Source: a virus. Taken from it: a stretch of 64,000 nt of DNA. Both the position numbers and the translations under genes were made by a program. Shown in pieces: positions 5,101 to 64,000 of the stretch (its first letter is position 1; each line of letters starts with the position of its first letter). The notes under the pieces are model-generated. The model was not told where the DNA came from. It worked only from the letters and a program-made list of their open reading frames with translations, and did not search any database. Where the stretch lies: positions 62,001 to 126,000 of IMG/VR virus record IMGVR_UViG_3300044712_000833; one strand, 5' to 3'.

Positions 5101-7388
5101 TATTTTCTCTTAAACTCCTCAACATTATTTATTTTTTCGTAATCTACAATCCACCAAACATATTCGTCAGGTACTTCCTTAAACCCTTCTCCTGATTTCA
5201 CAAACTTATTTTTCTTTTCAAAATTATTTAGAGAAACAATGTCTCCATATCTCAAAGGATTTCCATCAAAAAGTCCTTTTTTAATTTTGAATTTCTGTTC
5301 AGTACCTTTAGATAAAGAATAAAATGTAATACTTGGACTATATTTTAAATCAACTCCTGTAACCAATGCGTATTTAGCATTTACATCATAAGTAAGTTTT
5401 CTTTTATTCGCCTCTCTAACCTCTTTTTCTGTAATTTTCTTATCGAGAGGGCTGGAAGAAACACCTTTCTTTTTCTTCGTAATTTCTTGACCTAAAAAGT
5501 TCGTTCTTTTTCCAAAATCAATACTATTATCGAACATTGAAGTTTGAACAACACTTGGTTCAATTTCTTCAATCATCTTCTTGGCTTCTTTGATATACCA
5601 TTCTTTGTTTACTAGATACGACTCAAACGATTTGGACGGATCATATTCGTTTAGAATCTGAATCATCTTACCAACAAAGAGTCCAATTTGTCGTCCATCT
5701 CCGTGTTTCTTTAGAAGATAACCACCATAATTAGAAATATAAAATCTATTTGTTCGCTGAAGGTCTTGAATTCCAGAAAGCGTTTTTAGTTGCATCTGAA
5801 ATTCTTTCCCTACTTTCTGGCTAATGCAAAAATCAAAAATATCTTTAGAAGCATTTATTGTTTCTTTTACAGGAGTATTATGAACAAAATATTCATAAAC
5901 AGCCTTCGCAACAATTGGGTGTTTATATCCCTTTTTTAGATCAATGTCAGGGATAAAAGCACCTTTAGTTTTGACCTTGCCTTTATTATCAATTGCAATA
6001 TAGTTATTTACATCCCTTTTAATATAAGATTTGTAATATGTATATTCGAGAGTAAATCCTGTTCTTTCTTGCCATTCTTTACATACCTCATAGTACAAAG
6101 TTTCTTTTTTAATTGGAACTTCACACTCAATACCATCTGTATTTGCCGAAATACAGTGAATGCCGTTTAATTCAAGCATTTCAATCAGCATCAAAATATA
6201 AAGCTGTCCGGCAATTGTGACTGAAAGCATAGCCTTTGCATCTTCCAACCAAAATGTATCAGAATTTAGTTTTCCATAAAGCCCATTGATAGTAATCTTC
6301 AGACCATCAGCTTTTGTTTTATTGTCTTTCTTTGCCGCTAAACGTTCGGCAGTAAGAATACTTAAAACCTTTACAAATCCTTCATCTAAGTGTTCAGGAT
6401 AAATGTTATTTAGAATAATACAAGTAGGGTACATACTAGCAATATCACAACTAATAATTTTCTTCTCTGGGGTTTCATCAAAACGACAAGATGACTCCAT
6501 AGAGTGAATACCGCCTGATCCAATAGAATAACTTGTTCCTTTGTATTTAATAACTTCTTCAAATTTGAAGTTGTCATATCCCATTACCGTAGTATTCTTT
6601 ATTTTTTCATGAAAAGAAATTAATTCTGGAGTTTGAAAACTAATTACAACAGGGATACAATCTTTCAGATCAACAGATGAACGTTTTGTTCTAAGGTCTT
6701 TGATTGTTCTAACATCTACGCCTAATTCTTCTCTATAATAATGCTCCAAAATAATATTACCCATTTTGGAATCCGAAGCGTTCATTACATTCACATCATA
6801 CAACGCCCCAATTTCTTCTCGAAGCTTGATTTGAGGTTGAATTTGATTAAAGAGTTTTTGAGTAATTAAAACATCATTGATATTATATTCTAGAACAGTT
6901 TTAACTTCTTCTTTTGTTGAAATAGGATAATCATACGGGTAGGGCAAATCCTGAATTCTTTCATGCTTTAGATTTACTGCACATTGCTTCAAACCAACGC
7001 CAAGTCTATCAAAGTGCATAATCTTGAATAAATCCATAGAATCCCAAGGATAGTAAATATCTCTTGGGTATCTTAGTTTAACAAGATCATCGTCTCGTCT
7101 ATTAGCGTCTGAAATCAATCTCTTAGACAAAGCGAATAGTTTTTTTGGGAGACCGACTCCAACAGTCTGCTCTAAAATAAAACGCAATGCAGGGTCGTCA
7201 TAAGTAATACTGTTAAACCCAACTAATAGCATTTTTTGAGAACAAAAATCTTTCATAGATTGAAGGTCGTTGTGTCCACACCCGAAACTAAATTGAATTA
7301 CTTCCTGAGTTTCTTTGTCTAAAAATGTCAGACAGGCAAAGCTAGGAAAAGATTCAACATCGTAAAAATATGTTTTTTCGTAATTCAT
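5100..7388 (-). CDS. family B DNA polymerase
   Basis: 762 residues from the ATG after CGGAGAAC; a longer ORF start has no ribosome binding site and would lie in the promoter hairpin. The N-terminal 3'-5' exonuclease domain begins with YDVESFPSF (DxE) and continues with GFNSITYDD. The polymerase motifs follow in order: CDIASMYPT near residue 315 (motif A), KITINGLYGKL (motif B) and ANTDGIECE (motif C, the DTD equivalent). This is the replicative polymerase of the element. It leads a transcription unit with its own sigma-70 promoter and is coupled to the methyltransferase-like gene. The family assignment is secure; the host-range subfamily is not. Confidence 0.92.
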   Translation of the reverse strand: MNYEKTYFYDVESFPSFACLTFLDKETQEVIQFSFGCGHNDLQSMKDFCSQKMLLVGFNSITYDDPALRFILEQTVGVGLPKKLFALSKRLISDANRRDDDLVKLRYPRDIYYPWDSMDLFKIMHFDRLGVGLKQCAVNLKHERIQDLPYPYDYPISTKEEVKTVLEYNINDVLITQKLFNQIQPQIKLREEIGALYDVNVMNASDSKMGNIILEHYYREELGVDVRTIKDLRTKRSSVDLKDCIPVVISFQTPELISFHEKIKNTTVMGYDNFKFEEVIKYKGTSYSIGSGGIHSMESSCRFDETPEKKIISCDIASMYPTCIILNNIYPEHLDEGFVKVLSILTAERLAAKKDNKTKADGLKITINGLYGKLNSDTFWLEDAKAMLSVTIAGQLYILMLIEMLELNGIHCISANTDGIECEVPIKKETLYYEVCKEWQERTGFTLEYTYYKSYIKRDVNNYIAIDNKGKVKTKGAFIPDIDLKKGYKHPIVAKAVYEYFVHNTPVKETINASKDIFDFCISQKVGKEFQMQLKTLSGIQDLQRTNRFYISNYGGYLLKKHGDGRQIGLFVGKMIQILNEYDPSKSFESYLVNKEWYIKEAKKMIEEIEPSVVQTSMFDNSIDFGKRTNFLGQEITKKKKGVSSSPLDKKITEKEVREANKRKLTYDVNAKYALVTGVDLKYSPSITFYSLSKGTEQKFKIKKGLFDGNPLRYGDIVSLNNFEKKNKFVKSGEGFKEVPDEYVWWIVDYEKINNVEEFKRK

Positions 7389-7404
7389 GAGTTCTCCGTT
7401 AAAT

Positions 7405-7431
7405 AAAAATCTTCCCAATCAAGGGAAGATT
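7405..7431 (-). terminator. terminator-like hairpin overlapping the polymerase promoter
   Basis: AATCTTCCC / GGGAAGATT form a 9-bp stem with a 6-base loop followed by TTTTT on the minus strand. The stem includes part of the -10 box. It probably stops transcripts coming from the Mom-like gene. Confidence 0.65.
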
Positions 7432-7457
7432 ATACCACAAGGTTTCAATTTTGTCAA
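7429..7457 (-). promoter_or_regulatory. sigma-70 promoter for DNA polymerase
   Basis: TTGACA, 17 bp, TATAAT on the minus strand, about 40 bases upstream of the polymerase ATG. The -35 box overlaps the end of the upstream Mom-like coding sequence. Confidence 0.8.
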
Positions 7458-8047
7458 GGATACTTTTCCTCTTTCCAAAGAGGACTTAGAGATTTATCAT
7501 AAATCAATAAAAATCGATGTTTCCTACTTCTAGGTTTCCATTCTCCCTCTAACCCTTTAATCTTACCTCTGGAGTGTTTTGTGTAACTACCATCCACATT
7601 TTTTATCCAAAAATCTTTCTTTTCATCCGTTAGTCCATAATATTTAAAATTGCAAGCTTTATAAATTGTGCCAGAATGAAAATCACTGTCCGCATACGAT
7701 AAAATAGCTTTTACGTTTGTGTCTTTTTTTAATTGTTTTATGGAACGAGAAACAAACCAAGAAGTTATATTATATTCTTCTTTTTGAGTCTCTGGTTCAA
7801 CGCAAAGCCTACTTAATTCAAAAAATCCATTCTGATTGCTTCTGTCCAGTCCAAACAATCCTTTAACCAATTCTGGAACAGGAAAACCAGTAAAAATTAT
7901 TGATCCGACCAACTTTTCATTTTTAAAAAGTCCATAATTATACCCACTCTTAAATCCTTTTGAAATATCTTTTAGATAATGATGTTTCAAAAGGATTTCT
8001 GAAGCTTCTTTTTTAGATATGGATTTTATACAATATTCAGTCTTCAT
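7454..8047 (-). CDS. Mom-like DNA modification N-acyltransferase
   Basis: 197 residues with the layout of phage Mom-type proteins (GNAT fold). There is an N-terminal YGLFKNEKLVGSIIFTG strand pair, then FELSRLCVEP, and then LSYADSDFHSGTIYKACNFKYYG, the conserved ADxxHxGxxYxAxNF region. Mom of phage Mu modifies adenine in DNA and protects it from restriction; the substrate here is unknown. A second Mom-like gene lies at 40872-41604. It sits next to Dam and the polymerase, consistent with modification of newly made DNA. Confidence 0.75.
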   Translation of the reverse strand: MKTEYCIKSISKKEASEILLKHHYLKDISKGFKSGYNYGLFKNEKLVGSIIFTGFPVPELVKGLFGLDRSNQNGFFELSRLCVEPETQKEEYNITSWFVSRSIKQLKKDTNVKAILSYADSDFHSGTIYKACNFKYYGLTDEKKDFWIKNVDGSYTKHSRGKIKGLEGEWKPRSRKHRFLLIYDKSLSPLWKEEKYP

Positions 8048-8059
8048 AAAATTATGTTT

Positions 8060-8254
8060 TTATTCATGTTTCAAGACAGGATAGAATATGTTCAGAACAT
8101 ATTCTGAATCTAGATTCTCTATCCATTCAATTATTTCTTCTGGTTCAACAGGAGAACCAAATCTTTTTGAATTAGAATAAATGTCAACTTGTGCCTTTTT
8201 TATTAGTGAAATAATATATTCTTTAATAGCTTTAGACTCGTAATTCTCAGTCAT
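8060..8254 (-). CDS. unknown protein (64 aa)
   Basis: Small acidic helical protein between the Mom-like and Dam genes. No motif recognised. Confidence 0.45.
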   Translation of the reverse strand: MTENYESKAIKEYIISLIKKAQVDIYSNSKRFGSPVEPEEIIEWIENLDSEYVLNIFYPVLKHE

Positions 8255-54545: not shown

Positions 54546-54751
54546 TATTTACTCTCCCAAATTTCGCCCGACAATATACCATCTTTGATTTCGTCCGATC
54601 CAAATTCGATAGTAACAGAAGAGAAGAAACCAGCATCAAGAATTTTTACATATAGAGTTGCAGAATGTTCAGTGATTGTTTCATACCCAACAACCTTAAA
54701 TTTCATGTTACCTGTTTGATAAACTTTATCTTTCATTTTTTCGTAGTTCAT
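54545..54751 (-). CDS. unknown protein (68 aa)
   Basis: Mostly beta strands. Its last codons contain the first (leftmost) GGGCGAAAT motif, read as GEIW. Confidence 0.45.
   Translation of the reverse strand: MNYEKMKDKVYQTGNMKFKVVGYETITEHSATLYVKILDAGFFSSVTIEFGSDEIKDGILSGEIWESK
54561..54569 (-). repeat. type copy of the GGGCGAAAWT motif
   Basis: On the minus strand this short sequence recurs at 54817, 55424, 56015, 56200, 57216, 57889, 58746, 58823, 59361, 59640, 61714, 62818, 62954, 63219 and 63895 (left ends), with near matches at 60095 and 60720 and one in reverse orientation at 59877. It is read in all three frames where it falls in genes. Confidence 0.75.
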
Positions 54752-54999
54752 TCTTCGTCTCCGCTTGGGATATAGAATTCGTCGGTATATTCTGTAAAGT
54801 CACGTTTAGCAATTAAATTTCGCCCTTCATCTGTATTAATATAATTCCAAACCCTATCAACCAGAGTTTCAGGATCATTGGCTGTAAAAATCATAGGCGA
54901 TGAGGGGTAGGGAAATCGAACAGAGTAATTATTATGAGTAGTAAGTTCACTAACAAGAGCATGTTCGCAAACATAATTAATGATAGTTGACTTTTCCAT
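54748..54999 (-). CDS. unknown protein (83 aa)
   Basis: Acidic alpha/beta protein, overlapping the next gene. Carries one GGGCGAAAT motif read as GRN. Not recognised. Confidence 0.45.
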   Translation of the reverse strand: MEKSTIINYVCEHALVSELTTHNNYSVRFPYPSSPMIFTANDPETLVDRVWNYINTDEGRNLIAKRDFTEYTDEFYIPSGDEE

Positions 55000-55035
55000 T
55001 TTGTTTATCCTTAATAAAATTTATGTTTTATTCGT

Positions 55036-55389
55036 TTACCAGTCTTCTTCGTCTTCAAATTCATCAACAGAATCTAATTCATCATCTCCATTTTGATTTT
55101 CAATTTCTTCCCATTCAATATCGGGAAAATAAATAACTACTCCCAGCCCCATAGAGTCCGATTTTGCCCCCATAAAAAGAGGAGTAATATCTTCCAATTC
55201 AATACCATCATCATGAGATTCAACATAGGATTGAATAGCTTCTGCAATGGATAAGAAAGCGTCAAACCCATTTTCCCCACTTTCAAGATTGAAAGACAAG
55301 CATTTCTTTCCGTACACTCCGCGACCAGAATATGATTGTGTTTCAAATCCCGCATCTTCTACAATATCTTGCAAATCTGAAAAATTCAT
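55036..55389 (-). CDS. acidic protein (117 aa)
   Basis: The C-terminal 30 residues are mostly Asp and Glu (DELDSVDEFEDEEDW), as in DNA-mimic or anti-restriction proteins, though this is only a compositional hint. An ordinary folded domain precedes it. Confidence 0.5.
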   Translation of the reverse strand: MNFSDLQDIVEDAGFETQSYSGRGVYGKKCLSFNLESGENGFDAFLSIAEAIQSYVESHDDGIELEDITPLFMGAKSDSMGLGVVIYFPDIEWEEIENQNGDDELDSVDEFEDEEDW

Positions 55390-55447
55390 TTTGATTCTCC
55401 TGTTATTTTTTTTGTTTTATCAAATTTCGCCCAATAAAAGAATACTT

Positions 55448-55636
55448 TTATTCATCCGCTACATGTATCTCAAGACTTTCCCAAAACTCTAATTTTTCAG
55501 TTGTTTCAGTTCCCTTTTCAACCTGTGTCACATATACCAAAATCCGAGGAGAGTCTTTTTCAGGAAATTGCTGAAACAATTTTACATTATAAAAAGTCTT
55601 TCTTGAGCCATCCAATTCTTCCAATATTAACTTCAT
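55448..55636 (-). CDS. unknown protein (62 aa)
   Basis: Beta-rich small protein. The palindrome at 55434 provides its stop region. Not recognised. Confidence 0.45.
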   Translation of the reverse strand: MKLILEELDGSRKTFYNVKLFQQFPEKDSPRILVYVTQVEKGTETTEKLEFWESLEIHVADE

Positions 55637-55664
55637 AATTCATCCTTTACATAAAATACAGATT

Positions 55665-55955
55665 TTATGTGTTAAAAAGAAGTGAAACAAACGATTCTCT
55701 TCCACAATTAAAGCAATCTTTGTTGTAAACATTGTTTTCTTCGTCACAAAAAACACAAATCTTTGTAAGGTCTTCAGATTCGACACTCTTCCACGTAGTA
55801 TATTCTTCCTTTTGCCAAAAATAGAATTCGCCTCTTAGAGAATGAGAATTATAATCACTTACTCTTTCTCTCGCTTCTTCCTCTGTTTCAACATTTTCCG
55901 CACCCCATTTTCCATACTCGTCTAACATCCAAATAGCATAAGGTTTCATTTTCAT
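55665..55955 (-). CDS. zinc-ribbon protein (96 aa)
   Basis: C-terminal CVFC and CFNC form a zinc ribbon. The N-terminal 60 residues are acidic and aromatic. Not recognised. Confidence 0.5.
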   Translation of the reverse strand: MKMKPYAIWMLDEYGKWGAENVETEEEARERVSDYNSHSLRGEFYFWQKEEYTTWKSVESEDLTKICVFCDEENNVYNKDCFNCGRESFVSLLFNT

Positions 55956-55960
55956 TTATC

Positions 55961-56179
55961 CTATTCGTTGATAATGCAAGCCAAACAGGTTACTTTGAAG
56001 GGGCATTTGTTACAATTTTCGCCCGTTTCATTTACATAAAAATCTTTCGACTGATCCAAAGTTGCATTTGGTAAAAGTTCTCCGTTTGCAATCAACGTTG
56101 AAAGGCAGAGAATATCTTCAATACTTTCGGCGTTTTCAATCTTAGGATGAGTAACGGTTAGAGTCTTTACGTTTGTCAT
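55961..56179 (-). CDS. iron-sulfur or zinc cysteine-rich protein (72 aa)
   Basis: Starts at MTNVKTLTV after AAGGAAAA; a longer frame overlaps the neighbour. Ends CNKCPFKVTCLACI, four cysteines in a pattern like small Fe-S or zinc sites. GGGCGAAAAT is read as GEN just before. Confidence 0.5.
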   Translation of the reverse strand: MTNVKTLTVTHPKIENAESIEDILCLSTLIANGELLPNATLDQSKDFYVNETGENCNKCPFKVTCLACIINE

Positions 56180-56180
56180 T

Positions 56181-56399
56181 TTAGTTTTCCTTGTTTTCAA
56201 TTTTCGCCCTTTGAAGAAGAAATCGGGCTTTTTCTTTGGCTTGAGATTCGTCATCCCAAAAACCTACAATGTCTTTTGGGTCAAGACCACCTTTGTATTG
56301 ATTACAGAGTCCTTCGGTCAAATCCGTTTGAAAGCAAATGTCTTCCAGTGTTGAATTTTTGTTCGGTTTGGTTACAACCCAAAGGCGAGATATTTTCAT
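56181..56399 (-). CDS. unknown protein (72 aa)
   Basis: Alpha/beta, one cysteine pair. GGGCGAAAAT here is read in another frame (RAKIE). Not recognised. Confidence 0.45.
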   Translation of the reverse strand: MKISRLWVVTKPNKNSTLEDICFQTDLTEGLCNQYKGGLDPKDIVGFWDDESQAKEKARFLLQRAKIENKEN

Positions 56400-56434
56400 T
56401 TGATCCTCTTTTAATAAAACCTTGATTTTATAAA

Positions 56435-56830
56435 TTAAATATTTATTGTTGAAAACTCAACACTATAGCCAAGTAATTGCAACTCAGTTTTCAACCACAT
56501 AGCTACTTTCATAGCCGATTTCTTGTTCTTGAAAAAGCAATCGCCATCATCAAATTTTCCGCTATTTTCAACAACCTTTTTATGAAAAGAATCGTTTCCT
56601 AAGATGACATCAGGATTAGCTACGAAAACGTCTTCAAATCCATCATCGTCTAAATAATATTTGTTTCCGTTTTCATCTCGATTATTATCCAAGCAAATAC
56701 TTACGCAGTAAATATTATCCCCAGACTTTGCCTTTGGAAATAGAGTCTCTAAACTCCCCCAATTTTCCAATCTTTCACAGGAAACAGATAAATCAATATT
56801 GTTCAAGAATTGTTTTCCTTGATAATTCAT
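56435..56830 (-). CDS. unknown acidic protein (131 aa)
   Basis: Asp/Asn-rich protein with CVSICLDNN. A palindrome copy lies at each end. Not recognised. Confidence 0.5.
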   Translation of the reverse strand: MNYQGKQFLNNIDLSVSCERLENWGSLETLFPKAKSGDNIYCVSICLDNNRDENGNKYYLDDDGFEDVFVANPDVILGNDSFHKKVVENSGKFDDGDCFFKNKKSAMKVAMWLKTELQLLGYSVEFSTINI

Positions 56831-56875
56831 TTGAGACTCCTTTTGTTTATCTGAATAAAATCCTCATTTTATCGA

Positions 56876-57130
56876 TTAGAGTTCTCCCGGCTGTCTTCCA
56901 AAGCCGAAAATAGTCCAAACTTTATCCATAAATTTCGATTTTGTCATACTGCTTACTTCACCAGCACCAGATACAAAAATCGTAAGTGTTCCGTCTTTAC
57001 AGTCCGAACTAGGGGAAAAATTCAATCTGATTTCTTGATTGATATTGTTTCTTTTAATCTTTACAACAACTTCTCCCGTATTAACATCTCTGCTAACTTT
57101 CATGTCTGAGTTTGTTGGATAATCTGCCAT
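56876..57130 (-). CDS. unknown protein (84 aa)
   Basis: Beta-rich, predicted soluble. First gene behind the promoter at 57160. Not recognised. Confidence 0.45.
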   Translation of the reverse strand: MADYPTNSDMKVSRDVNTGEVVVKIKRNNINQEIRLNFSPSSDCKDGTLTIFVSGAGEVSSMTKSKFMDKVWTIFGFGRQPGEL

Positions 57131-57159
57131 TTTTATTCTCCTTATTCATTGATATAATA

Positions 57160-57188
57160 ATTATAGCACACTACTAAATAAAAAGCAA
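57160..57188 (-). promoter_or_regulatory. sigma-70 promoter
   Basis: TTGCTT, 17 bp, TATAAT on the minus strand, with ATGCGAAATTTTC just upstream (a relative of the GGGCGAAAWT motif). Confidence 0.7.
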
Positions 57189-57206
57189 TAGAAAATTTCG
57201 CATATA

Positions 57207-57434
57207 TTAATTGCAATTTTCGCCCGATAATATTAAGCCAGTGTAGACATTGTATTTATTATTAGGAGTCCTAACAACTCTAGCGCGACCATAAACGATA
57301 GGTTCACCGAGTCCGTTGTTTTCTTTTTCAGTCCAGACATCAACCTCATCAAACAAAAGTAGAATTTCATCCAGAGAATAAAACTTAAATGTTTGCCCCG
57401 CATTTAGTTTGTGAGAAGTGAAAATTTGCGCCAT
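57207..57434 (-). CDS. unknown protein (75 aa)
   Basis: Starts at the ATG of MAQIFTSHK; a longer frame runs through the tiny gene upstream. Ends LILSGENCN, with the GGGCGAAAAT motif in its last codons. Not recognised. Confidence 0.45.
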   Translation of the reverse strand: MAQIFTSHKLNAGQTFKFYSLDEILLLFDEVDVWTEKENNGLGEPIVYGRARVVRTPNNKYNVYTGLILSGENCN

Positions 57435-57438
57435 TGTT

Positions 57439-57513
57439 TTATCCAAAGATAACGAGAGAAAAACCAATGCCAAATAACACAACAATCGCAATTACAAAAA
57501 TAGTTGTTCCCAT
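57439..57513 (-). CDS. membrane miniprotein (24 aa)
   Basis: ATG after AAAAGGAT; the whole product is one hydrophobic helix (TIFVIAIVVLFGIGFSLVIF). Too short for certainty. Confidence 0.4.
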   Translation of the reverse strand: MGTTIFVIAIVVLFGIGFSLVIFG

Positions 57514-57516
57514 ATT

Positions 57517-57699
57517 TTATCCTTTTACATAACCTTCTTGAATTAGAAATTTTTCAAAATTAGCCAGTTTCTTTTTATTCTTGAAAATTTTTATATCAAA
57601 GAAAGGACTCCCGTCATTGTGAGTTTTATATCCGTCATGAAAGTTGACAAGATACTTACACTTGGCGACCCCATACATTATGTTATATGTTTTGTCCAT
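57517..57699 (-). CDS. unknown basic protein (60 aa)
   Basis: Lys/Tyr-rich protein. The next upstream gene is separated by a palindrome-like spacer. Not recognised. Confidence 0.45.
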   Translation of the reverse strand: MDKTYNIMYGVAKCKYLVNFHDGYKTHNDGSPFFDIKIFKNKKKLANFEKFLIQEGYVKG

Positions 57700-57711
57700 A
57701 AAATGATCCTT

Positions 57712-57873
57712 TTATTCGTTTACGACTTTGAAGATAGAAATTTCAGATAGCAAAATTTCTTCTTTGCTACCAACATACAGGGAAATTGTTATCATATTGT
57801 ACCCATAATGAATCTCTTCTACATTAAGTATGGTTTCCTGATTTCCATTTTTGTAAGAAATGTGAATTAACAT
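57712..57873 (-). CDS. unknown protein (53 aa)
   Basis: ATG after an AGGAGAAAAT site (minus strand). Beta-rich (YNMITISLYVGSKEEILL). Not recognised. Confidence 0.45.
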   Translation of the reverse strand: MLIHISYKNGNQETILNVEEIHYGYNMITISLYVGSKEEILLSEISIFKVVNE

Positions 57874-57881
57874 ATTTTCTC

Positions 57882-58181
57882 CTAGAAAATTTCGCCCGAT
57901 ATAAACGTTAACTTTGATCCAAAAACCTGCATGATTTCAAAATACTTTTCTTTATAAATTACAGGGTCATAAATGTCATAACTAACCGACTGAGGTAACC
58001 ATGACCAGAGATTATTACAAACTGAACGCAAGTATTCATCTATTTTTTGACCTGTTTTATCGTCAGTACGATATTCTTCAAATTTCTTAGTCTCAAGATT
58101 GAACAATCGAATTACCCAAAAGGTAACACCGTTCTTATTTATAGGATTAACTGTCATTGTAAATTCGTTTTGGTCAATCAT
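57882..58181 (-). CDS. unknown protein (99 aa)
   Basis: Alpha/beta protein ending SGEIF with the GGGCGAAAT motif at its stop. Not recognised. Confidence 0.45.
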   Translation of the reverse strand: MIDQNEFTMTVNPINKNGVTFWVIRLFNLETKKFEEYRTDDKTGQKIDEYLRSVCNNLWSWLPQSVSYDIYDPVIYKEKYFEIMQVFGSKLTFISGEIF

Positions 58182-58220
58182 TATATTTTCTCCATATATA
58201 AAAGATTACTTTTATTAATA

Positions 58221-58703
58221 TCAAACCGCCATATCCTTTACAATCTCATCTTGCCCCATATCTAGCAAGACTTCCTTAAGTTTCGCATAGAATTCAGCCC
58301 GACCATTATCATACAGGCTAATACCCATTTCACGGACAATATCAGCGGCGTAGTGGATGGTAATCATGTGAATTTGTTTTTCAGTCAGAACATCCCCAAA
58401 GTCTGCGAGAAATTCCATATTACCTGAAGAGTAATTTGCATTCCAGCCAGCAGATTCAATGTGTTCAGTATCAGAGTCAATGTACAATACTTTCAAGGTA
58501 TCATAGGTTGACTTCTTAGGGGCATTCCAGAATTCGCCAGCCTTGCGAGGATCGGTAGTTTGCCGAACAACGCGCATACCCTTTTTCTTGTCTGATTCAA
58601 TCCAGACACGCATTTTACAGCGCAAACGAAAACCAAAGGGGTAATCTTCAATAATAAAGGCGGTATCTTCTGAAGTGTGAATTTGTTCTAATAGTTGTTT
58701 CAT
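58221..58703 (-). CDS. unknown protein (160 aa)
   Basis: Starts after AGGAGACTAAACAA. Charged alpha/beta protein, slightly higher GC than its neighbours, so it may have been acquired separately. Served by the TTGCAA-type promoter at 58736. Confidence 0.5.
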   Translation of the reverse strand: MKQLLEQIHTSEDTAFIIEDYPFGFRLRCKMRVWIESDKKKGMRVVRQTTDPRKAGEFWNAPKKSTYDTLKVLYIDSDTEHIESAGWNANYSSGNMEFLADFGDVLTEKQIHMITIHYAADIVREMGISLYDNGRAEFYAKLKEVLLDMGQDEIVKDMAV

Positions 58704-58735
58704 TTGTTTAGTCTCCTGTTTTTATTGATACATCT

Positions 58736-58780
58736 ATTATAATCGATTTTCGCCCTAGTAACATTGCAAATTCATTGCAA
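58736..58780 (-). promoter_or_regulatory. TTGCAA-repeat promoter element, copy 1
   Basis: TATAAT preceded by CTAGGGCGAAAAT and, 22 bases upstream, TTGCAA repeated 11 bp further. No good -35 at 17 bp, so an activator may be needed. Confidence 0.6.
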
Positions 58781-58782
58781 AA

Positions 58783-59010
58783 TTATTCAATAAACAATTT
58801 TTCATTTTCTACCCAAGCGGATTTTTCGCCCATTGAACGAGCAATATCAGAAAATAAATCAGCACAGTCTCCCCAAATTTCAGGGCGATCCCAAAAACCA
58901 ACACCGTGACCATTGCGAGTCAACCAAAAATCATGACCCATTTGGTTCATAATCTCTTGATTGCTCCAATCAATAATGAAAGTTTTCTTTTTGTATTCCT
59001 CATTAGTCAA
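58783..59010 (-). CDS. unknown protein (75 aa)
   Basis: Starts with TTG; the nearby ATG is out of frame. Trp-rich (FWLTRNGHGVGFWDRPEIWGD), a pattern seen in many small phage proteins with unknown function. Confidence 0.5.
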   Translation of the reverse strand: MTNEEYKKKTFIIDWSNQEIMNQMGHDFWLTRNGHGVGFWDRPEIWGDCADLFSDIARSMGEKSAWVENEKLFIE

Positions 59011-59147
59011 TATTTTTTCAATAAATGAGTAGCAATCTTGATAAGTTGATTTCCATGAATCAACATCGAAACCGCTTCAAAATATGCCCCCATAATTGAA
59101 AGAGCCTTATTTGTATCATTTGGTGCATGGGACGGGTTTTTATTCAT
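59007..59147 (-). CDS. unknown small protein (46 aa)
   Basis: ATG behind an AGGAGT-like site. Helical with a basic end. Overlaps the next gene by four bases. Confidence 0.45.
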   Translation of the reverse strand: MNKNPSHAPNDTNKALSIMGAYFEAVSMLIHGNQLIKIATHLLKKY

Positions 59148-59174
59148 AAAACTCCTTTATTTTGTTATAATATA

Positions 59175-59203
59175 ATTATACCAAATATCTTTATAAATTG
59201 CAA
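59175..59203 (-). promoter_or_regulatory. sigma-70 promoter
   Basis: TTGCAA, 17 bp, TATAAT on the minus strand, with ATGCGAAATTTGC upstream. Confidence 0.7.
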
Positions 59204-59245
59204 GAGCAAATTTCGCATAGAATAATTGCAGATTCATATTAAAAA

Positions 59246-59371
59246 TTATGACCTATCTTGATTATTTCTTAGTTTTGATCTATGCTGGATAAATCTTTGA
59301 TTAGGGTTTACACTTAGTCCTATATATTTCTTGCCATTAACTTTATTTTCAATACAATAAATTTCGCCCAT
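59246..59371 (-). pseudogene. GIY-YIG endonuclease fragment (41 aa)
   Basis: MGEIYCIENKVNGKKYIGLS and RFIQHRSKL are the first half of a GIY-YIG nuclease domain; the arginine is present but the catalytic glutamate region is missing. A remnant of a homing endonuclease. Its start codon overlaps a GGGCGAAAT motif. Confidence 0.65.
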
Positions 59372-59374
59372 TGA

Positions 59375-59647
59375 TTACTTAATTCTCTTTCTTTCTCTTG
59401 CTATATCAGTAATTAAAGTTCCTTGTAAGTGATGACTCTCATGTTGTGCAATACGGGCAAGCATTCCAGATAATACAATCGACTTAGATTCTCCGTCAGA
59501 TGACGTGTAATCTAACGTAATAAAATTATGACGTTCAATAAGACATAGAAGATTAGGAATTGATCCGCATCCTTCCCAGTCCCACGATGTACCTTTGTCT
59601 TTGTGACGTTTGATTGTAGGATTGATAAAGGCTTGCCAAATTTCGCC
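59375..59647 (-). pseudogene. peptide deformylase remnant without N-terminus
   Basis: 90 codons with no usable start. EGCGSIPNLL matches the EGCLS motif and ARIAQHESHHLQG the HExxH zinc motif of peptide deformylases. The first third, with GLAAPQ, is missing. The frame opens exactly at a GGGCGAAAT motif, directly after a TAG. This may be a deletion scar; phages do encode intact deformylases. Confidence 0.65.
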
Positions 59648-59744
59648 CTATGTAAAAGGCGAGTCGGTCTTCGGCGGTAATAGTTTTGATCCAGTCTTTA
59701 CCTTTCAGAGTATAACGAGATTTGAAAAGGTTAGGATAAATCAT
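59553..59744 (-). CDS. unknown protein, possibly a chimeric 5' fragment (63 aa)
   Basis: Starts MIYPNLFKSRY with ordinary phage composition for 32 codons to the GGGCGAAAT motif, then reads through the deformylase remnant in another frame. Only the first half looks real. Confidence 0.4.
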   Translation of the reverse strand: MIYPNLFKSRYTLKGKDWIKTITAEDRLAFYIGRNLASLYQSYNQTSQRQRYIVGLGRMRINS

Positions 59745-60007
59745 TATATCGTTATAATTACTTCAAAATTAGGTTTATCAGGCATGACTCGGTCAATTCC
59801 ATATTTACGACTCGCATAATCTAGAGTCTTATCGTACATTTCAATTGCAGATTCGTAATTATTAGCATATGCGTTAGGGCGAAACGTTTTTTCTACTGTT
59901 TGTCCTTCTATAATCCCCCCTACAATCCAGTCATATCCATATTCGCTTATATATAACTCACATTCTCCGCATTTTTCTTGATATAAAACTTTTCCGATTG
60001 TTTCCAT
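59744..60007 (-). CDS. unknown protein (87 aa)
   Basis: Alpha/beta protein with CGEC near residue 13. Overlaps the next gene by one base. A reversed copy of the GGGCGAAA motif is in it. Not recognised. Confidence 0.5.
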   Translation of the reverse strand: METIGKVLYQEKCGECELYISEYGYDWIVGGIIEGQTVEKTFRPNAYANNYESAIEMYDKTLDYASRKYGIDRVMPDKPNFEVIITI

Positions 60008-60035
60008 GATTAACTCCTTGATTATTTATACTTCA

Positions 60036-60064
60036 ATTATAGCAGAGAAAAATATAAATGTCAA
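60036..60064 (-). promoter_or_regulatory. sigma-70 promoter
   Basis: TTGACA, 17 bp, TATAAT on the minus strand, with AAGGGCAAATTTTC upstream. Confidence 0.8.
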
Positions 60065-60102
60065 TGATTTTTTATTGCAGGTTCATTACAGAAAATTTGC
60101 CC

Positions 60103-60447
60103 TTATGAATTAAGTAAAATTTCCGGCATGAGTTCAGTCATTTTGTTATAAATCGTTTCCCACTCAATTTGATCTCCGCAATGAGTAAAAATAATATAAC
60201 GTAAGAGAGACTGAATAGATTTGTCTTGAATATTATAAAGTAAGTTAGACAACATAACTTTAATTTCAATATCTCGCACAGAATCTACTTTTTGAGGTTC
60301 AGGCATTCCTTCCCCCTTCCACATTTCAAGAATTTTAGAAGGATGAAAATTAATAAGTCCAAAAGAGTATTTTTTCTCAAGGATTTTCCAATCGTTTACG
60401 CTTAGAGAATTATGCCATTCGATAGCCTTATCAATTTCGTTTGTCAT
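60103..60447 (-). CDS. unknown helical protein (114 aa)
   Basis: Mostly helical, acidic. Ends at the upstream edge of the promoter at 60036. Not recognised. Confidence 0.5.
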   Translation of the reverse strand: MTNEIDKAIEWHNSLSVNDWKILEKKYSFGLINFHPSKILEMWKGEGMPEPQKVDSVRDIEIKVMLSNLLYNIQDKSIQSLLRYIIFTHCGDQIEWETIYNKMTELMPEILLNS

Positions 60448-60448
60448 T

Positions 60449-60931
60449 TTAGACTCCTAGTTTCTTTGTTAAAAGTTCTTTATGGTTACTGTGAATAAGG
60501 TCATTTTGCAAGTCTTCAACAAGAGACTTTTTAAGGGCAATGCAAAACTTTTCGAAAACCTGTAAAATCTTTTCTACGTTCCCTTCAGCCTTACGAAAAG
60601 ACAACTTGCGCCGACCATAAGCAGAATATTTGTCTTCAGGCTTAAGCCAGTACGATTTATTGACATTTTCAATTAAGATAATTTCGGGCAATTCGGAGTC
60701 GATTGTAACATCTTTGGAAAATTCGCCCGATGGAGTCACAATGCGAAAGGTAATGTGTAGCATGTCATTATCCCAGTAACTCCTTGAGTTTTCTTCTTTT
60801 GATCCTGCCAAGAAAAGATTAACGTAAATGCTAGAATAAAAGCGAGAGTCAAATTTCGCAAACGCTTTACTATGTGGAAAGTGTTTATTATAAATTGACT
60901 CAAGGCTAGAGCATAATTTAGATGTAATCAT
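60449..60931 (-). CDS. unknown protein (160 aa)
   Basis: Basic/aromatic alpha/beta protein; a GGGCGAATT motif is read as GEF. Two bases from the next gene. Not recognised. Confidence 0.5.
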   Translation of the reverse strand: MITSKLCSSLESIYNKHFPHSKAFAKFDSRFYSSIYVNLFLAGSKEENSRSYWDNDMLHITFRIVTPSGEFSKDVTIDSELPEIILIENVNKSYWLKPEDKYSAYGRRKLSFRKAEGNVEKILQVFEKFCIALKKSLVEDLQNDLIHSNHKELLTKKLGV

Positions 60932-60948
60932 TGTGACTCCTTATTTAT

Positions 60949-61152
60949 TTAAACCTGAGAAGGTAATGGAAGTTCAATTTTATTTAAGAGACAAAGTACC
61001 TTTTTTGCTTCCGCAAGATTTTTACCATCTGCAATTAATTCTCCATCTCCATTATCTGCAAAAATTTTAACTCCTTTGAATCCGCTTTTACTTTCAAAGT
61101 GTTCAATTTTTACATTCCAGCCAGAATTAACAAACCGCGTAATAATGTCCAT
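60949..61152 (-). CDS. unknown protein (67 aa)
   Basis: Alpha/beta with GFKGVKIFADNGDGELIADG. Served by the element at 61182. Not recognised. Confidence 0.45.
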   Translation of the reverse strand: MDIITRFVNSGWNVKIEHFESKSGFKGVKIFADNGDGELIADGKNLAEAKKVLCLLNKIELPLPSQV

Positions 61153-61181
61153 TTTTTTGATTTCCTTTTTTGTTATAACTA

Positions 61182-61226
61182 ATTATACCCTATTTTGCCC
61201 CTAGAAATATTGCAAAATCATTACAA
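61182..61226 (-). promoter_or_regulatory. TTGCAA-repeat promoter element, copy 2
   Basis: TATAAT, CTAGGGGCAAAAT, TTGCAA 22 bases upstream and TTGTAA 11 bp further, matching copies at 58736 and 62097. Confidence 0.6.
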
Positions 61227-61418
61227 ATTTTTATTTAAGATGTCTATGTAATCAAAACAAATTTTTTTGTAATTTTGGAATCCCCCTCGCATTGATAAAA
61301 TAGAAAACTGAGTCATTTGATGACTTGTAAACCCTTCAGCCAGCATAGCCCGCCAAACATAGCCACCCATAGCGGTAACAGAAGTTTGATCTACATTATC
61401 CAAAGAATATTTTTCCAT
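61221..61418 (-). CDS. unknown protein (65 aa)
   Basis: Small helical protein with CFDYIDILNKNL at its end, overlapping the promoter element. Not recognised. Confidence 0.45.
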   Translation of the reverse strand: MEKYSLDNVDQTSVTAMGGYVWRAMLAEGFTSHQMTQFSILSMRGGFQNYKKICFDYIDILNKNL

Positions 61419-61453
61419 AGTTGACTCCTTATAAAATGGCGATTTTATCCAAG

Positions 61454-61693
61454 TTATTTGGTATAAATCCTGAACCCATACCCCTGCTTTGTGGGTTCGG
61501 TAGTAAAATTAGACTTTACTTTGTTCCTAATAATCCCAAGATTACAAGAATTAATATAATCCTCTATAAATTTCTCTTGATATTCGGTAAATGGTTTTAA
61601 ATTGCTGATGGGTCTAATATAAATATGACCCGTCAAAGCATGAATGATTTTTACAGGGAAAGGGAAAGATTCAGATTCTAATTTTGCGCCCAT
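61454..61693 (-). CDS. unknown protein (79 aa)
   Basis: Alpha/beta protein, basic end. Starts two bases from the next gene's stop. Not recognised. Confidence 0.45.
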   Translation of the reverse strand: MGAKLESESFPFPVKIIHALTGHIYIRPISNLKPFTEYQEKFIEDYINSCNLGIIRNKVKSNFTTEPTKQGYGFRIYTK

Positions 61694-61694
61694 G

Positions 61695-62072
61695 TTATGA
61701 CTCCTGATCCTGACTTTCGCCCATCAAATAATCATAGGCGGTTTTTGTGATAACATAAGAGTTCCGTTCAGCCCGCATTACGTAGACCGTCTTAAAGAAT
61801 CCCTTTGCTAGATTTTCTTTATCTTGATTATATTTGATAACTTCAGGATGATTAGGATTACCAAACGGAAAATCCCAAGAGCGGCAAATCTGACGGAGTC
61901 GCTCCGCTTCTTTTTCTTCTTTGTTGTCATCCCGTACCGTTTCAATAGAAGGGCTATAACCTTCATTCTTAAGGGTCTCTAACCATTCCTTGACCGTCAT
62001 TACTTTTTTATTGTGACGGATAAGGGAATTTAAGTATTTTTCAGTCCGTGCCTTTTGCGCTTGAGTAATCAT
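61695..62072 (-). CDS. unknown protein (125 aa)
   Basis: Starts at MITQAQKARTEK after AAGGAGTCGTA. Basic helical first half with VMTVKEWLETLK, which could be an HTH-like helix pair. Not recognised with certainty. Confidence 0.5.
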   Translation of the reverse strand: MITQAQKARTEKYLNSLIRHNKKVMTVKEWLETLKNEGYSPSIETVRDDNKEEKEAERLRQICRSWDFPFGNPNHPEVIKYNQDKENLAKGFFKTVYVMRAERNSYVITKTAYDYLMGESQDQES

Positions 62073-62096
62073 TACGACTCCTTGTTTGATACAATA

Positions 62097-62142
62097 ATTA
62101 TAACCCAATTTTGCCCCTAGAAACATTGCAAAAACGTTGCAA
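62097..62142 (-). promoter_or_regulatory. TTGCAA-repeat promoter element, copy 3
   Basis: TATAAT, then CTAGGGGCAAAAT, TTGCAA 23 bases upstream and again 11 bp further. Best preserved copy. Confidence 0.6.
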
Positions 62143-62595
62143 TTATTTGATTTTTTCTATCTTTACACAGTCTCCGGTATAAAACCTATACCCCTTAACT
62201 CTTGATTTTCCCTTAGTAACCGTAATCATGGTCATTTTATCATCTGATTTTATTTCTACAACCTTACCAAAATCGGATGACTCCATAAGAAGAGAGTTAT
62301 TAAAACTGTAAGTTACTTTATCCCCTACCGCGATTCCTTCTAAATCCGATTGTTCTAAAATTACTTGGGGAAGGTCTAGTAATAATCCTGTTTTATGAAG
62401 TTCAGGAATATCTTTAGCGGGAACATAACACCAGTTCCCAAAATGAGAAGTTACCCTATAAGAATCTCTACTTATAATACCTTTTAATTCAATGTCTGAG
62501 ATTTTTAAACCGACTTTCCCCAACTCCTCGGTTAAGACTTCTTCCATTGATTTATTTTCACTATAGGGAATATCGACTCGGATTGTTTTAATCAT
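62143..62595 (-). CDS. unknown protein (150 aa)
   Basis: Alpha/beta; the C-terminal part (IAVGDKVTYSFNN..GKVVEIKSDDKMTMITV) resembles a small barrel. Not recognised. Confidence 0.5.
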   Translation of the reverse strand: MIKTIRVDIPYSENKSMEEVLTEELGKVGLKISDIELKGIISRDSYRVTSHFGNWCYVPAKDIPELHKTGLLLDLPQVILEQSDLEGIAVGDKVTYSFNNSLLMESSDFGKVVEIKSDDKMTMITVTKGKSRVKGYRFYTGDCVKIEKIK

Positions 62596-62607
62596 TTTTG
62601 AATACCT

Positions 62608-62898
62608 TTAAATCACTTGAAAAATAGCATAATCCGACAACATGCCGCCGCCGATAATTTTAATGGCTTTTTCGTATTCGGGCATTGTTTTAATGTAATC
62701 TTCTGGACAAAGGTACAAGAGTCTGTAATTATCTTTTGGCTTTTCCTCAAGATAATATGCAATTTGAATTGTGCCGCCTTTTAATGCCTCATGTTCGGAT
62801 AATACCAGTTTCCCCTTATTTTCGCCCGATAAACTAAGGCGATTTTCAGGACGGACTCCGGTATTGAAGTACATTTTATAACCTTTATTTTCTTCCAT
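62608..62898 (-). CDS. unknown protein (96 aa)
   Basis: Starts at MEENKGYKMYF after CAGGAGATTC. Beta-rich. A GGGCGAAAAT motif is read as GEN. Behind the promoter at 62922. Confidence 0.5.
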   Translation of the reverse strand: MEENKGYKMYFNTGVRPENRLSLSGENKGKLVLSEHEALKGGTIQIAYYLEEKPKDNYRLLYLCPEDYIKTMPEYEKAIKIIGGGMLSDYAIFQVI

Positions 62899-62921
62899 GT
62901 TTGAATCTCCTGTATAATTCA

Positions 62922-62950
62922 ATTGTAGCACAATTTGAAAACAGAGTCAA
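62922..62950 (-). promoter_or_regulatory. sigma-70 promoter
   Basis: TTGACT, 17 bp, TACAAT on the minus strand, with GGGCGAAAATTCC touching the -35 box. Confidence 0.75.
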
Positions 62951-62964
62951 GGAATTTTCGCCCT

Positions 62965-63192
62965 TTATTTTCCAGTATAACCCGAATCGTTTACAGATTC
63001 GCCCCGTGCTATTTTTGCATCCCGTAAATGGTAGGTAATCGCCCATGCAATAGCATCTAATTTTTTACGGGCTGAAGGGGTGTATAGATAGAATTGACCC
63101 CTTAACCGATTCTTTGGGTCTTCCTTGATTTTCTTTTCCATCTCTTGCAATTCTGCTATGGAGTATTTATTGTAGAGTTTCGCGGAGTCCAT
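62965..63192 (-). CDS. unknown protein (75 aa)
   Basis: Starts at MDSAKLYNKYS, overlapping the upstream stop (TAATG). Helical, basic. Not recognised. Confidence 0.5.
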   Translation of the reverse strand: MDSAKLYNKYSIAELQEMEKKIKEDPKNRLRGQFYLYTPSARKKLDAIAWAITYHLRDAKIARGESVNDSGYTGK

Positions 63193-63608
63193 TATTCGAC
63201 TCCACCGTAAAGAGGAAAATTTTCGCCCTTGAAAGTATCCCATAGTAAAAAGTCAATATACCCGTTTTCAACAATTGAATCAAGCGGGTTAACAATATGG
63301 TAATTATGAATGTTAGTCCATGCTCGCCCACGAAGAGTCACACTTTCATTATCTTCGATGGTTGAATCTTCACAGATTACCAAACATTGACTCATTTGCC
63401 CTAACTCATCGGCATTACAAACATGCCAGCCATTACACCAGTAAGACTCGGTTAATTCAATAAATGCTTGGTCAGAATTCGGGGTATAACTTGTTAACAT
63501 GTCTTCTTCATGGTCTTTTATAAACTGCAAAAAATCTGCCTGATTTTCAGCCGTTACACGCAAGACTCGCCCGTTATCGATAATTTCAAATTTTAGATTT
63601 TCTGTCAT
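63192..63608 (-). CDS. unknown protein (138 aa)
   Basis: Acidic alpha/beta protein with several Trp residues (YWCNGWHVC) and cysteines. GGGCGAAAAT is read as GEN near its end. Not recognised. Confidence 0.5.
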   Translation of the reverse strand: MTENLKFEIIDNGRVLRVTAENQADFLQFIKDHEEDMLTSYTPNSDQAFIELTESYWCNGWHVCNADELGQMSQCLVICEDSTIEDNESVTLRGRAWTNIHNYHIVNPLDSIVENGYIDFLLWDTFKGENFPLYGGVE

Positions 63609-63618
63609 GATTGACTCC

Positions 63619-64000
63619 TTATTCGCCTTGAATGAATTCGATTCGATTCGATTGTTTAGCGTCCTTAATCCATTCTTGCAATTCTTTTTTACTCACGTTT
63701 ACATCAGGCAAAAGAATATATGAGTTATTCAGGATAGCGGAGGGGATTTTATTACCATACTTGTAAACTGCCAAGATGACCCCGTTAAGGTCGTATTGTA
63801 CAAAGATTGCAAGGCGATTCCCGTTGGAGTCATGACCTGCCTTAAGACATTGTACAAGAGTTAAAGGGTTTTCACTGATAAAACATTCCCCCATTTTTCG
63901 CCCTGCATTGTCTTCGATGTAATTAGTCCCTTTTTGGTAGACTCCAGCCGTGATTTTTGCGCCAACTGAATGAAGGGTATTCTCTAGGTCATCAGCCTGA
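63619..64000 (-). CDS. unknown protein, N-terminus outside window
   Basis: The frame is open to the window end, so the ATG at 63894 is probably internal. The visible 127 residues include AGVYQKGTNYIEDNAGRK and VQYDLNGVILAVYKYG. The GGGCGAAAAAT motif is read as GRK here. Not recognised. Confidence 0.5.
   Translation of the reverse strand, partial: QADDLENTLHSVGAKITAGVYQKGTNYIEDNAGRKMGECFISENPLTLVQCLKAGHDSNGNRLAIFVQYDLNGVILAVYKYGNKIPSAILNNSYILLPDVNVSKKELQEWIKDAKQSNRIEFIQGE

What the first reader, a model, noticed from the sequence alone, without database searches (positions are those of the whole stretch)
54561..63903. GGGCGAAAWT motif concentrated in the last 9.5 kb, in coding and intergenic DNA
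I count about 16 close copies, nearly all on the minus strand, and found no TTCGCCC on the plus strand before 54.5 kb in my reading. It is read in all three frames inside genes (GEN/GEI, GRN/GRK, AKI), so protein conservation cannot explain it. The signal acts at nucleotide level: an origin or initiator site, a partition or packaging site, a recombination hot spot or an RNA-processing site. It also sits at the junction of a truncated gene (59640) and next to several promoters.
Basis: seen in the sequence. Interest (0 to 1): 0.82.

Follow-up and report, generated by a model that had tools for sequence, protein, structure and literature searches.

The report
Oriented site array in phage early genes
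A large phage repeats one short DNA word dozens of times, always in the direction of transcription, through its first-transcribed 11 kb and almost nowhere else, and several relatives do the same with a different word, which suggests strand-specific landing sites used to shut off early genes.

Summary
The window is part of a 129,715-bp metagenomic phage of the SPbeta superfamily. GGGCGAA occurs 23 times on the minus strand, all within record 116,563-127,875 (18 in the window); outside that stretch the record has none, and inside it one plus-strand copy. A synonymous-codon shuffle gives 1.5 in genes (maximum 6 of 1000) against 18 seen. A position matrix finds 33 sense sites there and none in sense elsewhere. 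The stretch is the promoter-proximal start of the leftward arm, a run of small genes. Nine of 11 sigma70-type promoters there carry the motif, only near -14, -37 or -61 from the -10 box. Terminase relatives lack this word, but at least five carry another at the same place and orientation (ATAACAGA, GGAAAATYTG, CGGAAAAT); in three of these the word is depleted from the sense strand of non-early genes. Best reading: asymmetric, directional silencing sites resembling mycobacteriophage stoperators, bound by an unidentified protein. A cleavage or repression tag in early mRNA, like T4 RegB sites, is nearly as likely. Origin, partition and packaging readings are not supported. No MrpR homologue, repressor-type protein or serine integrase was found.

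The parts
54560..63903 (-). part of the motif array inside the window (continues to record 127,875)
54560..54569 (-). GGGCGAAATT, 24 nt upstream of next start codon
54816..54825 (-). GGGCGAAATT, in gene
55161..55170 (-). variant GGGGCAAAAT, in gene
55423..55432 (-). GGGCGAAATT, intergenic
56015..56024 (-). GGGCGAAAAT, in gene
56200..56209 (-). GGGCGAAAAT, in gene, 30 nt before next start
57193..57202 (-). variant TGCGAAATTT at register -37 of promoter with -10 at 57165
57216..57225 (-). GGGCGAAAAT at register -60 of promoter with -10 at 57165
57423..57432 (-). variant GGCGCAAATT, in gene
57888..57897 (-). GGGCGAAATT, last codons of a gene, 24 nt before next start
58746..58755 (-). GGGCGAAAAT in the -35/-10 spacer (register -14) of promoter with -10 at 58741
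58822..58831 (-). GGGCGAAAAA, in gene
59208..59217 (-). variant TGCGAAATTT at register -37 of promoter with -10 at 59180
59360..59369 (-). GGGCGAAATT over the start of a GIY-YIG fragment
59375..59648 (-). motif GGGCGAAATT (59639-59648) followed at once by the C-terminal half of a truncated peptide deformylase gene
60094..60103 (-). variant AGGGCAAATT at register about -61 of promoter with -10 at 60041
60719..60728 (-). GGGCGAATTT, in gene
61192..61201 (-). variant GGGGCAAAAT in the -35/-10 spacer of promoter with -10 at 61187
61681..61690 (-). variant GGCGCAAAAT at start of a gene
61713..61722 (-). GGGCGAAAGT, end of gene, 29 nt before next start
62108..62117 (-). variant GGGGCAAAAT in the -35/-10 spacer of promoter with -10 at 62102
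62818..62827 (-). GGGCGAAAAT, in gene
62954..62963 (-). GGGCGAAAAT at register -36 of promoter with -10 at 62927
62995..63004 (-). GGGCGAATCT, end of gene
63219..63228 (-). GGGCGAAAAT, end of gene, 36 nt before next start
63894..63903 (-). GGGCGAAAAA, in gene

Best explanation
The motif (about TTWATC-GGGCGAAAWTTG, roughly 13 bp, no dyad) is an asymmetric, orientation-dependent binding site for an unidentified phage protein that silences the first-transcribed (early) genes. Bound in or just upstream of early promoters it would act as an operator. Bound elsewhere in the early transcription units it would stop RNA polymerase arriving from one side, as stoperators do. This would shut off early genes later in infection, or in lysogeny if the phage is temperate. 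Shown: the array, its strict sense orientation, its restriction to the start of the early arm, nucleotide-level selection inside genes, the promoter registers, and comparable but differently spelled arrays in relatives. Inferred: that a protein binds DNA there, that the effect is silencing, and its timing.
For: 23 of 24 GGGCGAA in the record are sense to transcription in one 11.4-kb block; 33 sense sites above 12 bits in the block, 0 sense elsewhere. In-gene excess over codon shuffle. Nine of 11 promoters in the block carry it, at only three registers, four of them between -35 and -10. Sites prefer 15-80 nt before start codons (P 0.003). Relatives have sense arrays at the same place in the genome: G008 34 sense sites against 0 elsewhere in sense, G006 23 against 4, G035 48 against 2, G032 31 against 1, G033 24 against 5. 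In non-early genes the word is depleted in sense in three relatives (G035 3 against 13.3, G033 16 against 27.4, G032 8 against 17.2) and less or not in antisense. Precedents: L5-clade stoperators, 13-14 bp without dyad, 20-30 per genome, oriented with transcription, specificity differing between relatives (PMC6550527), reversal abolishing repression (PMC9283540); in the same superfamily the SPbeta repressor MrpR binds the repeated element SPBRE (PMC10516654).
Against: No candidate binding protein. Pfam and PHROG scans showed no repressor-type helix-turn-helix and no serine integrase among the hits listed; phmmer found no MrpR homologue. In G033 most of the strong sigmaA promoters of the early region lack the motif, so promoter operators are not general. 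The G000 promoters fall into look-alike groups, so the registers are not independent. L5 stoperators lie mostly in short intergenic spaces across the genome, whereas here 18 of 23 are in genes and all are in one block. All of this is sequence inference.
Confidence: 0.45

Rival explanations
1. RNA-level tag: the motif is read in early mRNA by a phage endoribonuclease or RNA-binding repressor that inactivates early transcripts, as T4 RegB does.
For: Strict sense orientation, restriction to early transcripts, preference for translation-initiation regions, depletion from sense strands of non-early genes in relatives, strong promoters without the motif in G033, no repressor found. T4 RegB cuts GGAG followed by A-rich sequence in early mRNAs, mostly in translation-initiation regions and sometimes in coding sequence (PMC3014915); the words here are also G(s) followed by A-rich sequence. 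The phage encodes an RNA ligase and a kinase-like P-loop protein.
Against: Four sites lie in -35/-10 spacers at fixed register. Sites in G000 are not more single-stranded than with shuffled flanks (0.41 against 0.46), though RegB is inhibited by structure. Information content near 16 bits is high for an RNase. No RegB-like gene was identified.
Confidence: 0.33
2. Gene-boundary recombination word: short oriented repeats where small early genes are swapped.
For: Clustering near gene ends and starts; the array coincides with a block of small genes mostly without homologues; a truncated deformylase begins at one copy.
Against: Ten bases is short for homologous recombination; many copies are mid-gene, in excess of synonymous-codon expectation; depletion in sense strands elsewhere in relatives is not explained.
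Confidence: 0.09
3. Promoter or activator element: the motif recruits RNA polymerase or an activator for early transcription.
For: Registers near -37 and -61 from the -10 box resemble class II and class I activator positions; Brevibacillus phage Sundance has an early-region word (TTACATTAAT) that is part of a longer promoter-like element.
Against: Most copies are inside genes with no -10 at fixed distance; no conservation beyond the 11-13-bp core; two strong promoters lack it.
Confidence: 0.08
4. Replication, primase, partition or packaging signal.
For: Strand asymmetry and location near the inferred divergence point of the two arms.
Against: Spread over 11 kb with a median spacing of about 500 bp; orientation tracks transcription; sites prefer positions upstream of gene starts in G000, G006 and G008; not at the sharp skew switch.
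Confidence: 0.04
5. Chance or coding artefact.
For: None after testing.
Against: Dinucleotide and codon shuffles, all frames, intergenic copies, independent arrays in relatives.
Confidence: 0.01

Closest known systems
Stoperators of cluster A mycobacteriophages (L5, Bxb1, TipsytheTRex)
   Same: Asymmetric site of about 13 bp, 20-35 copies, oriented with transcription, some in promoters and most not, specificity differing between related phages.
   Different: Confined to the first 11 kb of the early arm, mostly inside genes; no repressor found; lysogeny unproven; unrelated host and phage group.
SPBRE / MrpR system of Bacillus phage SPbeta
   Same: Same phage superfamily (terminase about 37%, RdRP-like polymerase gene, shared core genes); repeated element oriented with transcription and placed at early promoters or against the Shine-Dalgarno sequence.
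   Different: SPBRE (about ATACAAAWAATATGTAT) is longer, nearly palindromic, intergenic and spread over the whole arm; a MrpR homologue was found only in Sundance among the phages tested, not in G000.
T4 RegB cleavage sites (GGAG + A-rich)
   Same: Early-transcript sites, strand-specific, often at translation-initiation regions, also in coding sequence.
   Different: Word is longer and differs by phage; no RegB-like gene identified; copies also lie in promoter spacers.
Promoter-early-stem-loop (PeSL) cassettes of T4-like phages (from memory)
   Same: Repeated element in a plastic block of small early genes.
   Different: No stem-loop and no linked downstream promoter at most copies.

Membership tests
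Cluster A stoperator system | 13-14-bp site without dyad symmetry, 20-30 copies | tested here: met
   about 13-bp core, 23 exact and 33 matrix sites
Cluster A stoperator system | sites oriented with transcription | tested here: met
   23 sense, 1 antisense
Cluster A stoperator system | some sites in promoters, most not promoter-associated | tested here: met
   10 of about 33 at promoters
Cluster A stoperator system | sites distributed throughout the genome, mainly in short intergenic spaces | tested here: not met
   one 11.4-kb block; 18 of 23 in genes
Cluster A stoperator system | cognate monomeric repressor with HTH and stoperator domains | tested here: inconclusive
   no repressor-type family among the hits; an L5-type repressor sequence itself was not compared
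Cluster A stoperator system | binding stops elongation in one orientation | not testable with these tools
   needs reporter assays
SPbeta MrpR/SPBRE system | MrpR (tyrosine-recombinase-fold repressor lacking catalytic residues) | tested here: not met
   phmmer with MrpR finds Sundance only; the replication-arm tyrosine recombinase of G000 matches Phage_integrase and appears by eye to keep the catalytic R, K, H, R, H, Y
SPbeta MrpR/SPBRE system | SPBRE consensus sites | tested here: not met
   GGGCGAAAWT does not resemble the element derived
T4 RegB early-mRNA cleavage | RegB-type endoribonuclease | tested here: inconclusive
   none named in Pfam/PHROG scans, but the small proteins are mostly unassigned
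T4 RegB early-mRNA cleavage | cleavage inside the motif in early mRNA | not testable with these tools
   needs RNA end mapping

The most novel reading that the evidence does not exclude
A lineage of large SPbeta-related phages marks its early transcription units with a dense, strictly sense-oriented word whose spelling drifts from phage to phage (GGGCGAAAWT, ATAACAGA, CGGAAAAT, GGAAAATYTG), is kept out of the sense strand of other genes, and is read by an undescribed factor that silences early genes on DNA or RNA independently of lysogeny.
Probability: 0.4. Interest if true: 0.78.

Novelty: new variant of a known kind. Interest (0 to 1): 0.62.

Why it matters
If true, directional silencing sites are not a peculiarity of cluster A mycobacteriophages but are also used, with a faster-drifting spelling, by a widespread group of large phages whose early host-takeover genes are almost all uncharacterised. 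The word also offers a simple way to delimit early regions in metagenomic phage genomes, and co-variation of word and gene content offers a route to the unknown factor.

Tried and rejected
(1) Same word elsewhere: a pair-spacing scan of IMG/VR and whole-record searches found no other GGGCGAAAWT array. (2) Motif plus TATAAT scan of IMG/VR: 54 single hits, none examined further. (3) Relatives through an early-gene protein or the capsid in IMG/VR: none. (4) Host through genome contigs: only a 3-kb contig in an archaeal MAG, probably mis-binned. (5) RNA accessibility: no effect in G000. (6) MrpR as reader: no homologue in G000. (7) G012, Enterocloster phages, LIBA6276, FADO: no comparable array with this scan; weak or coding-type signals in G031, G034, G036, G037, LC76P1 and MT835469 are not counted. 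(8) G012's top word is a tandem repeat. (9) Shine-Dalgarno enrichment probably explains the GGAGG words of G036/G037 but not GGAAAAT in G035. (10) The mycobacteriophage L5 record was not available as a positive control.

Full report
What the window is. The window is positions 62,001-126,000 of a 129,715-bp IMG/VR virus record. Gene calls show a plus-strand arm (about 0-52 kb; terminase, capsid and other structural genes) and a minus-strand arm (about 53-128.3 kb). The terminase is about 37% identical to SPbeta YonF, a 902-aa protein at record 5,422-8,130 carries an RdRP-like polymerase domain (YonO-like by family and position, inferred), and about a dozen core families are shared with SPbeta, Enterocloster phages and metagenomic relatives. 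The record shows no end repeats, so it may be incomplete.

The observation. GGGCGAA occurs 23 times on the minus strand, all in record 116,563-127,875; there are none on the minus strand in the first 116.5 kb and one on the plus strand, inside the array. Shuffles of the window give 2.9 against 19. Eighteen copies lie in genes against 1.5 expected from synonymous-codon shuffling, maximum 6 in 1000, and it is the most over-represented 7-mer of the region by that test. A matrix built from the sites extends the set to about 33 sense sites above 12 bits, 0 sense sites elsewhere, and one antisense site inside and one outside. The matrix was trained on the region, so these counts describe the array and do not test it independently; the exact-word counts do that.

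Where the sites sit. The array begins in the first gene of the minus arm and ends 11.4 kb downstream, in a block of small genes mostly without homologues, one of which matches TreK, a terminal-repeat protein of Staphylococcus phages. That these are early genes is inferred from position, gene size and promoters. Sites favour the 15-80 nt before a start codon (11 against 4.2 by circular shift, P 0.003). Of 11 sigma70-type promoters listed in the block, nine carry the motif or a close variant, at offsets near -14 (four, inside the -35/-10 spacer), -37 (three) or -61 (three) from the -10 box. Ten offsets in three 3-bp bins did not occur in 5000 random draws, but the promoters fall into look-alike groups, so this overstates the independence.

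Relatives. Records with 55-81% terminase identity lack an array of this word. A scan for clustered 7/8-mers found other words in the same kind of place: ATAACAGA in G008 and TAACAGA in G006, GGAAAAT in G035, CGGAAAAT in G032 and G033, each on the sense strand near the start of the arm that faces away from the structural arm. Dinucleotide-shuffled controls in the first batch scored at most 6.7 against 20-32 for G000, G006 and G008. Matrix counts (sense in region against sense elsewhere, above 12 bits) are 34/0, 23/4, 48/2, 31/1 and 24/5 for G008, G006, G035, G032 and G033, with 0-1 antisense in the regions. The preference for sites before start codons holds in G006 and G008, partly in G035, and not in G032 or G033. 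In genes outside the early block the word is depleted from the sense strand in G035, G033 and G032, less so or not in antisense; the numbers for G000 itself are too small to tell. Not every relative has an array: G012, the Enterocloster phages, LIBA6276 and FADO show none with this scan, and several weak signals were not counted.

Mechanism. Any explanation must account for strand-specificity relative to transcription, restriction to the start of the early arm, independence of reading frame, and drift of the word between relatives. Two mechanisms do so. One is directional DNA-bound silencing. In L5-clade mycobacteriophages 20-30 asymmetric sites oriented with transcription are bound by a repressor that blocks initiation at operators and elongation at stoperators (PMC6550527), and reversing the sites abolishes repression (PMC9283540). 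SPbeta, in the same superfamily as G000, uses MrpR on the repeated element SPBRE (PMC10516654); in SPbeta that element is itself mostly sense-oriented and set against promoters or Shine-Dalgarno sequences. The other is an mRNA tag like T4 RegB sites, which lie in early transcripts, mostly in translation-initiation regions, as GGAG followed by A-rich sequence (PMC3014915). Promoter-spacer copies and the lack of an accessibility signal favour DNA for G000; motif-free strong promoters in G033 and the absence of an identified repressor favour RNA. I put DNA at 0.45 and RNA at 0.33. In both cases the reader protein is unknown, and silencing is inferred.

What is known and what differs. It works like a stoperator array, but I do not file it as a member: genome-wide intergenic distribution was tested and not met, and no cognate repressor was found. 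It is not the MrpR/SPBRE system: phmmer finds a MrpR homologue only in Sundance among the phages tested, and the words differ. Sundance's own early word, TTACATTAAT, belongs to a longer promoter-like element before gene starts and somewhat resembles SPBRE; I treat it as a separate case.

Origin and packaging. The GC-skew switch of the record is at 50-55 kb, far from the array. The array lies next to the point where the two arms would diverge if the record is circular, which is also where early transcription would start, so proximity to a possible origin is not informative.

Noticed in passing
record 120,001-129,715 (window 58,001-64,000 and beyond): GANTC (HinfI/CcrM site) is strongly over-represented towards the record end: 77 in the last 4.7 kb against about 15 expected, 40 in the 5 kb before, about 17 per 5 kb elsewhere; in genes 47 against 21 by synonymous shuffle. 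The phage encodes a methyltransferase whose best PDB match is CcrM. The large relatives G006, G008 and G012 show no comparable enrichment.
   Followed up: partly
window 59,375-59,648 minus: Truncated peptide deformylase: only the C-terminal half (EGCGS and QHExxHLxG motifs), starting at a motif copy.
   Followed up: partly
window 59,246-59,371 minus: 41-aa GIY-YIG endonuclease fragment whose start overlaps a motif copy.
   Followed up: no
record minus arm: Three Mom-like DNA modification proteins, at least three DNA methyltransferases, an RNA ligase and a kinase-like P-loop protein in one phage.
   Followed up: no
Brevibacillus phage Sundance KT151959 (L173), 121.6-134.0 kb: Repeated early element GTGTGTTTTT-N12-TTACATTAATATATGA before many small genes, and a MrpR homologue annotated as putative integrase at 118,759-119,727; the element may be its SPBRE counterpart.
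   Followed up: partly
L017 about 1,290-1,260, 2,670-2,640, 3,440-3,410 (minus): Recurrent small intergenic hairpins of the type AAAAT-N4-ATTTTAT between early genes (seen).
   Followed up: no
L102 2,611-2,870 (relative G012): Tandem array of a 12-bp unit GGGATTCAGTGW near the start of G012's plus arm.
   Followed up: no
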